Shown here in pieces: positions 23,414-24,106 of a stretch of DNA of 64,000 nt. The notes beneath the pieces were generated by a model that saw only the letters and a list, made by a program, of their open reading frames with translations, was not told where the DNA came from and did no database searches. The position numbers were made by a program, and so were the translations under genes. Within the stretch, counting starts at the first letter, position 1; each line of letters begins with the position of its first letter. This stretch comes from Candidatus Dormiibacterota bacterium (lineage in GTDB: Bacteria > Chloroflexota > Dormibacteria > CF-121), in contig DASZZN010000018.1 in assembly GCA_035544955.1 (NCBI GenBank), positions 1 to 64,000 of the forward strand, in the 5' to 3' direction.

Positions 23414-24106
23414 ATGCCCTCCCAGGTCTTCTCGGTGCCCGAGGTGAAGCGGTTGCTGGAGCAGGGCGCGCAGCTGGTAGACGTGCTCGGCGACGACGAG
23501 TTCGCCAACGACCATCTACCCGGCGCGATCAATATCCCGTTGAAGCGGCTCGATGAAAAAACAGCGGCCGGACTCGATCGCGAGCGGCCAGTGCTCGTCT
23601 ACTGCAACGACTTCGGTTGAGACCTCTCGCCGAGGGCCGCGTGGCGGCTCGAGACGCTTGGCTTCAAGAACGTGATCGACTATGTCCCCGGCAAGCTGGC
23701 GTGGTACGAGGAAAACCAGCCGCGCGAGGGCAAGGCCGTCGAGGAGACCTGGATCGGTGACGTCGCGGATCCGGAGGTGCCGACCTGCGGTCTCAAGGAT
23801 CGCGTCGGCGATGTGCGCGGTCGGACCGGGGATTGGGCCACCTGCGTCGTGCTCGGCCCGGCGCGGGTGGTCCTCGGGTTGCTGCGCAAGGCAGAGCTCG
23901 ACGGGGACCCCAGCGCGACCGCGGAGCGGGTGATGCGGCCGGGGCCGAAGACCTTCCGACCGAACGTGACGCTCGAGGAGCTGCTCAAGTCGATGCGCGA
24001 GCACGACATCCAGACCAACAGCCTGGTCACCACTGGCGAGGGCCGGCTGCTGGGCGTGATCTCACGCGCCGACGCCGAGGCGACCCTCGCCCACGAGCAG
24101 GCTTAG
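23414..24106 (+). CDS. Rhodanese-CBS protein with in-frame TGA; candidate selenoprotein
   Basis: One frame runs from the ATG at 23414 to TAG at 24104 and is broken only by TGA at 23618 (codon 69). Before it lies the first part of a rhodanese domain (QLVDVLGDDEFANDHLPGAI, then PVLVYCNDFG). After it the domain continues without shift (DLSPRAAWRLETLGF, VIDYVPGKLAWY), then two CBS-like halves (TCVVLGPARVVLGLL and VTLEELLKSMREHDIQTN, GRLLGVISRADA). The TGA falls in the active-site loop, five residues after Cys64. From memory, homologues carry Cys there (pattern VYCxDxxCDLSPRAA). A hairpin lies 10-31 bases downstream. Selenocysteine insertion would give 230 residues. A nonsense mutation or sequence error is the alternative; other genes here use TGA as a normal stop. 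Confidence 0.7.
23631..23651 (+). promoter_or_regulatory. SECIS-like hairpin downstream of the in-frame TGA
   Basis: CGAG (23631-23634) pairs with CTCG (23648-23651) and CCGC (23637-23640) with GCGG (23644-23647), leaving a GG bulge and the loop GTG (23641-23643). The loop begins 20 bases after the TGA and its first base is G. Bacterial SECIS elements typically have the loop about 16-37 bases after UGA with a G in its first two positions, so the geometry fits. Confidence 0.5.

What the first reader, a model, noticed from the sequence alone, without database searches (positions are those of the whole stretch)
23414..24106. Candidate selenoprotein: rhodanese-CBS gene with TGA in the active-site loop
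A single frame of 231 codons is broken only by TGA at 23618. Domain homology runs straight through without frameshift, and the TGA lies at the rhodanese active-site loop, five residues after Cys64, where homologues, as I recall them, carry Cys (VYCxDxxCDLSP). A bulged 8-bp hairpin with a G-first loop begins 10 bases after the TGA, its loop 20 bases after it, within the usual bacterial SECIS range. A Cys64-Sec69 pair would make a redox-active or sulphur-transfer centre. I know of no described selenoprotein with this rhodanese-CBS architecture.
Basis: partly seen in the sequence, partly recalled or inferred. Interest (0 to 1): 0.8.

Follow-up and report, generated by a model that had tools for sequence, protein, structure and literature searches.

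The report
Selenium-containing rhodanese-CBS protein family
A soil bacterium's gene that looks broken by a stop codon almost certainly reads that codon as selenocysteine, the 21st amino acid, in the active site of a sulfur-handling enzyme, and the same coding is kept in about 130 related genes from several bacterial phyla, so this is a widespread selenoprotein family that I could not find described.

Summary
Window 23414-24106 (+) is one frame of 230 residues interrupted only by TGA at 23618-23620 (codon 69). It encodes an N-terminal rhodanese domain and a C-terminal CBS pair. The genome carries selA-selB, a tRNA-Sec gene (anticodon TCA) and a selD that has its own Sec codon. All 32 close matches in 61 relatives, all 80 named-genome homologues fetched, and all 38 Chloroflexota and 49 Actinomycetota matches better than 1e-30 carry TGA (the sets overlap); every locus opened has it at this site. 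Two Chloroflexota members have a second TGA at the catalytic cysteine (UxxxxU). Shorter rhodaneses without CBS domains have Cys at exactly this position (CxxxxC). A 7-bp hairpin with a G-first loop starting 20 nt after the TGA is almost invariant: four codons are frozen as GCC/GCG/CGG/CTC in 79 of 79 genes. The region after the TGA is under purifying selection. No NCBIfam model (June 2026) reaches its cut-off, and the 2026 review lists five rhodanese selenoprotein forms, none with CBS domains. I judge it a genuine, apparently undescribed selenoprotein family. A CxxxxU rhodanese handling sulfane sulfur (or selenium) under nucleotide control is inferred, not shown.

The parts
23414..24106 (+). 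Selenoprotein gene, rhodanese + CBS pair, 230 aa (ATG to TAG) with one internal TGA
   Evidence: orthologues start and end at matching positions
23435..23710 (+). Rhodanese domain (residues 8-99)
   Evidence: PF00581 5e-14; matched in 59/59 members; top fold match BH2092 3nhv
23603..23605 (+). Cys64, catalytic cysteine of the rhodanese loop (TGC); TGA in L109 and L121
   Evidence: Invariant Cys or Sec in A2; double-TGA loci
23618..23620 (+). TGA, read as selenocysteine 69 (CxxxxU motif)
   Evidence: TGA in 80/80 named-genome loci and in all strong matches
23634..23650 (+). Putative bacterial SECIS hairpin GGGCCGC-GTG-GCGGCTC; loop 23641-23643 starts 20 nt after the TGA
   Evidence: Codons +6, +7, +9, +10 invariant in 79/79; pairs kept in 61-62 of 63 protein-search loci
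23744..24073 (+). Tandem CBS module (about residues 111-220); Pfam detects only the second repeat (171-220)
   Evidence: PF00571 1.6e-9, in 57/59 members; model matches CBS pairs of MgtE, AcuB and ST2348

Best explanation
The gene encodes a selenoprotein. SelB and tRNA-Sec decode UGA 69 as selenocysteine, directed by the hairpin 20 nt downstream. The product is a rhodanese whose active-site loop reads C64-x-x-x-x-U69, where canonical rhodaneses have CxxxxR (from general knowledge), joined to a CBS pair. SHOWN by sequence comparison: UGA conservation, Sec machinery, conserved hairpin, Cys/Sec correspondence, purifying selection on both sides. INFERRED: Cys64 picks up a sulfane sulfur (or selenium) atom as a persulfide, Sec69 attacks it or forms a Se-S bond with Cys64, and thioredoxin-type reductants regenerate the pair, so the enzyme reduces or hands on persulfide quickly; the CBS pair tunes this by binding adenine nucleotides. 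I put the Sec reading at about 0.97 and the thiol/selenol persulfide-reductase or transferase role at about 0.45.
For: Sec machinery in the same genome: selB, selA next to it, tRNA-Sec with anticodon TCA, selD whose own loop reads GAGUACK through an in-frame TGA. TGA at the site in all 32 strong matches in 61 relatives, 80/80 named-genome loci, and in all 38 Chloroflexota and 49 Actinomycetota matches better than 1e-30 (every locus opened has it at codon 69). SelA in 34/35 carriers across phyla and in 36/42 Actinomycetota carriers against 196/354 non-carriers, Fisher p = 1e-4 (the 42 tallied by hand). Hairpin: GCC, GCG, CGG, CTC fixed in 79/79 although family-wide use of these codons is 38-43%; the same in loci fetched by protein similarity alone. 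Cys at the aligned position in rhodanese-only homologues and in BH2092. dN/dS after the TGA 0.09-0.27. Two members with UxxxxU. Confident model, pLDDT 95.5.
Against: No peptide or selenium measurement. The hairpin's folding energy alone is not unusual. No full-length Cys orthologue was found; a divergent copy has Ser. Some carriers lack selA: 2 of 30 relatives, 1 of 35 named genomes, 6 of 42 Actinomycetota, mostly draft MAGs. No conserved operon points to a function, so the biochemical role rests on domain chemistry.
Confidence: 0.88

Rival explanations
1. The TGA is a true stop: the gene is a pseudogene, or makes a 68-residue truncated rhodanese, with the downstream ORF translated separately.
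For: TGA is a stop in table 11; family members also end in TGA; a downstream ORF with internal starts exists.
Against: TGA at one site in over 100 genes of several phyla with no sense-codon orthologue apart from one divergent Ser copy, dN/dS 0.09-0.27 downstream, and rhodanese homology running through the TGA. A 68-residue product would lose the last third of the domain.
Confidence: 0.02
2. UGA is read by near-cognate suppression or as another residue (Trp, Cys), independent of selenium.
For: Readthrough of UGA occurs in bacteria in general (own knowledge).
Against: The genome has the full Sec pathway; carriers are enriched for selA (p = 1e-4); the hairpin downstream is frozen at synonymous sites; the aligned residue in shorter homologues is Cys.
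Confidence: 0.02
3. A selenoprotein whose task is selenium handling: the rhodanese carries selenium as a perselenide on Cys64/Sec69 for SelD.
For: A selenium-substituted rhodanese and a possible delivery role of protein perselenide were proposed (Ogasawara 2001, seen only as a reference in PMC5877670). The family occurs with selA.
Against: Many Sec-using genomes lack the gene (for example G016, G017, G023, G035), so it is dispensable for Sec synthesis; no sel genes recur next to it.
Confidence: 0.15
4. A selenoprotein that works as a redox or nucleotide sensor: the CxxxxU loop is a regulatory switch and the CBS pair the main module.
For: CBS pairs are regulatory modules (family knowledge); model matches nucleotide-bound AcuB and MgtE CBS pairs; orphan single gene.
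Against: The rhodanese active-site residues are the most conserved part (H34, C64, D66, U69, D70, R74 invariant), more than the CBS part.
Confidence: 0.25

Closest known systems
TsoB, rhodanese/DsbD fusion-like selenoprotein (NF045694)
   Same: Rhodanese domain with a UxxxxU motif (PMC13188914 table); two of our members also have UxxxxU, the rest CxxxxU, so the second Sec is probably at the same loop position
   Different: TsoB is a DsbD-like fusion; ours is a 25-kDa protein with a CBS pair. Score 27.7 against a cut-off of 805. Position match inferred from the motif only
NF041203 rhodanese_LYCAU (rhodanese selenoprotein form 3, CxU)
   Same: Rhodanese selenoprotein
   Different: Sec at +2 from the Cys, not +5; score 15.9-27.4 against a cut-off of 115; no CBS
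Rhodanese-like selenoproteins forms 1, 2 and 4 of the 2026 review (PMC13188914)
   Same: PF00581 with Sec
   Different: Forms 2 and 4 are UxxG, probably Sec in place of the catalytic Cys; form 1 is UxxS, which our UDLS/UDMS also fits; no CBS mentioned. Their sequences could not be compared here
BH2092 of Bacillus halodurans (PDB 3nhv, 3o3w) and short actinobacterial rhodaneses with CSNRAC loops
   Same: Rhodanese fold, CxxxxC loop with Cys aligned to Sec69; best structural match
   Different: Single domain, no CBS, no Sec
Tandem CBS modules of AcuB, MgtE, ST2348
   Same: Fold of residues about 111-220
   Different: Not joined to a rhodanese or to Sec

Membership tests
Bacterial selenoproteins | In-frame UGA conserved across orthologues | tested here: met
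Bacterial selenoproteins | SelA, SelB, tRNA-Sec and SelD in the same genome | tested here: met
Bacterial selenoproteins | Stem-loop just 3' of UGA, G in the first two loop bases, loop about 16-37 nt away | tested here: met
   Loop GNN starts 20 nt after UGA, conserved in 61-62 of 63 loci; range from own knowledge; energy of the single sequence not significant
Bacterial selenoproteins | Cys in homologues at the Sec position | tested here: met
   Rhodanese-only homologues and BH2092
Bacterial selenoproteins | Selenium in the protein at that residue | not testable with these tools
   Needs 75Se labelling or mass spectrometry
Rhodanese superfamily (PF00581) | Profile match, fold, catalytic Cys in the loop | tested here: met
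   59/59 members; fold match 3nhv; C64 invariant as Cys or Sec
Rhodanese superfamily (PF00581) | Sulfurtransferase activity | not testable with these tools
   Needs an assay
TsoB (NF045694) | Curated full-length profile with the DsbD-like part | tested here: not met
   27.7 bits against a cut-off of 805; only the rhodanese part matches
rhodanese_LYCAU (NF041203) | Curated profile and CxU motif | tested here: not met
   15.9-27.4 bits against 115; our motif is CxxxxU
Rhodanese selenoprotein form 1 (UxxS, WP_010941598.1) | Sec position and architecture | tested here: inconclusive
CBS domain proteins (PF00571) | CBS profile match and CBS pair fold | tested here: met

The most novel reading that the evidence does not exclude
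A previously undescribed, widely distributed selenoprotein family in which a nucleotide-sensing CBS pair controls a CxxxxU (sometimes UxxxxU) rhodanese that uses a selenol to reduce or hand on persulfides: a selenium-dependent, energy-regulated step of sulfane-sulfur metabolism in soil Chloroflexota, Actinomycetota and neighbours.
Probability: 0.4. Interest if true: 0.75.

Novelty: new variant of a known kind. Interest (0 to 1): 0.6.

Why it matters
Standard annotation cuts this gene at codon 68 or starts it after the TGA, so a conserved enzyme is probably missing from many soil-bacterium genomes. It would add a selenoprotein family in lineages rarely discussed for selenium use, and it offers a natural comparison of CxxxxC, CxxxxU and UxxxxU loops on one fold, a direct test of what selenium brings to sulfur-transfer chemistry. 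The joined CBS pair suggests a link from cell energy state to sulfur or selenium handling. The near-frozen hairpin also gives a clean case for studying SECIS recognition by Chloroflexota SelB.

Tried and rejected
Pseudogene or true stop: rejected by conservation and dN/dS. Hairpin judged by folding energy: not significant alone, so replaced by synonymous-site comparison. Rfam scan of the window: nothing at gathering thresholds. Gene neighbourhood: no conserved operon; the gene is an orphan beside varying genes. The only recurrent neighbours were lineage-specific, such as an MFS transporter about 1.7 kb upstream in 12-14 loci. Membership in TsoB or rhodanese_LYCAU: tested, cut-offs missed by far. 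Co-occurrence in the 61 nearest relatives is weak evidence, because most of them use Sec anyway (28/30 carriers against 24/31 non-carriers with selA), hence the Actinomycetota sample. Haft and Tolstoy 2025 (PMC12013261) is not held, so its families were checked through NCBIfam and the 2026 review; the deep-Sep paper does not mention rhodanese or CBS. No paper in the library holds rhodanese, CBS domain and selenocysteine together.

Full report
OBSERVATION. Window 23414-24106 (+) is a single frame, ATG to TAG, of 230 residues with one internal TGA at 23618-23620. Mechanical ORF calling splits it into a 68-aa piece and a downstream piece. Read through, it is Rhodanese (5e-14, residues 8-99) followed by CBS (1.6e-9, 171-220), and homology passes the TGA without a frame change.

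SELENOCYSTEINE MACHINERY. The window's genome (3.67 Mb, 52 contigs, 95% complete) has SelB (C-terminal wing 57.9 bits; full length), SelA directly beside it (548.9 bits), a tRNA-Sec gene (59 bits, anticodon TCA) and SelD (394.6 bits). The SelD gene itself has an in-frame TGA giving WSHGAGUACKIG, so the genome has at least one other standard Sec codon.

CONSERVATION OF THE TGA. In 61 relatives, all 32 matches better than 1e-50 contain TGA, at the same aligned codon in the 30 loci read. A scan of named genomes returned 188 relatives, of which the best 80 were kept; all 80 have TGA at this codon. By record title they are Chloroflexota (including Dehalococcoidia, Anaerolineae, Thermomicrobia), Dormibacterota, Actinomycetota (Rubrobacter, Thermoleophilia, Solirubrobacterales, Acidimicrobiales), a Rokubacterium and a 'Bacillota' MAG that groups with Chloroflexota. 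In 400 Chloroflexota genomes, all 38 matches better than 1e-30 contain TGA. In 396 genomes of the Actinomycetota sample, all 49 matches better than 1e-30 contain exactly one TGA. Every locus opened from these last two searches at that level has it at codon 69. The sets overlap; together I estimate roughly 130 distinct genes. Exceptions are informative: a divergent copy in G443 has Ser at the site (VYCDGGLSDLS), a G200 copy has TGA and a frameshift just after it, and a G495 copy lacks the active-site region.

SEC/CYS PAIR AND DOUBLE SEC. The nearest relatives without a TGA are short rhodanese-only proteins with loops such as VVYCSNRACQNSPQAA, whose second Cys aligns exactly with codon 69. The solved rhodanese BH2092 likewise reads YCWGPACNGA. 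Two Chloroflexota members, L109 and L121, have TGA also at the catalytic Cys (VYUHDSAUDMSP, VYUMDGLUDMSP), giving UxxxxU.

SECIS. The bases after the TGA are nearly frozen. Codons +6, +7, +9 and +10 are GCC, GCG, CGG and CTC in 79 of 79 genes although each codon makes up only 38-43% of its amino acid's codons in these genes; the Arg codon +5 always ends in A or G, and codon +8 ends in G whatever the residue. The 63 loci found by protein similarity alone, hence not selected by a DNA pattern, show the same. In the window the hairpin is GGGCCGC-GTG-GCGGCTC, 23634-23650; its loop starts 20 nt after the TGA with G. Related sequences are not independent, so I give no p-value. That this hairpin is the SelB-binding SECIS is inferred from position and constraint.

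SELECTION AND CO-OCCURRENCE. Against six congeners, dN/dS is 0.05-0.14 before and 0.09-0.27 after the TGA (Nei-Gojobori), so both halves are maintained. SelA is present in 34/35 cross-phylum carriers. In the Actinomycetota sample it is present in 36/42 carriers and 196/354 others (Fisher p = 1e-4; counted by hand from the listings). In the 61 relatives, 28/30 carriers have SelA and SelB; the two exceptions are draft MAGs lacking both.

WHAT IT DOES. AlphaFold2 on 59 family members gives a confident model (pLDDT 95.5, pTM 0.87). Its best solved matches are BH2092 for the rhodanese and CBS pairs of MgtE, AcuB and ST2348 for the C-terminal half. Invariant residues cluster in the rhodanese loop: H34, Y63, C64, D66, Sec69, D70, R74. 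In canonical rhodaneses the residue five after the catalytic Cys is usually Arg/Lys, which binds the substrate oxyanion (general knowledge); here it is Sec. I therefore infer a CxxxxU pair that takes sulfane sulfur (or selenium) on Cys64 and resolves it through Sec69, under control of a nucleotide-binding CBS pair. This is inference: there is no conserved operon and no assay.

COMPARISON WITH KNOWN SYSTEMS. Rhodanese selenoproteins are known. The 2026 review (PMC13188914) lists five forms (UxxS, UxxG, CxU/NF041203, UxxG, TsoB/NF045694 UxxxxU) and does not mention CBS. Our proteins score 16-28 bits against NF041203 and NF045694, whose cut-offs are 115 and 805. Earlier surveys list rhodanese-related families without CBS (PMC1088965, PMC2398784, PMC9312934).

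VERDICT. A real selenoprotein family with a new domain architecture and a CxxxxU/UxxxxU loop; function inferred.

Noticed in passing
L109:4305-4982 and L121:3314-3970: Rhodanese-CBS genes with two in-frame TGA codons (UxxxxU), including the catalytic cysteine; the two fall near each other in the tree but not as sisters.
   Followed up: partly
G000:C50:24617-25543 (locus L043): SelD of the same genome is itself a selenoprotein (WSHGAGUACKIG, in-frame TGA), which ordinary annotation would truncate.
   Followed up: partly
L171 (G443:C20:13574-14212): Divergent full-length copy with Ser in place of Sec, beside a TGA copy in the same genome: possible loss of Sec after duplication.
   Followed up: partly
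L137 (G200:C2:214393-215053): TGA copy with a frameshift right after the Sec codon in a nearly closed genome: sequencing error or a decaying copy.
   Followed up: no
L151:1093-1392 (G411): A second, Cys-type rhodanese (VVYCSTVDCLSS, CxxxxC) lies just upstream of the Sec gene.
   Followed up: no
L034 (selC locus, G000:C29): The tRNA-Sec gene sits beside a thioredoxin (WCAPC) and an FmdB-like zinc-ribbon protein.
   Followed up: no
G010:C42 and G010:C208; G615:C13, C122: Several genomes carry two or three copies of the gene; some may be mixed strains in MAGs.
   Followed up: no
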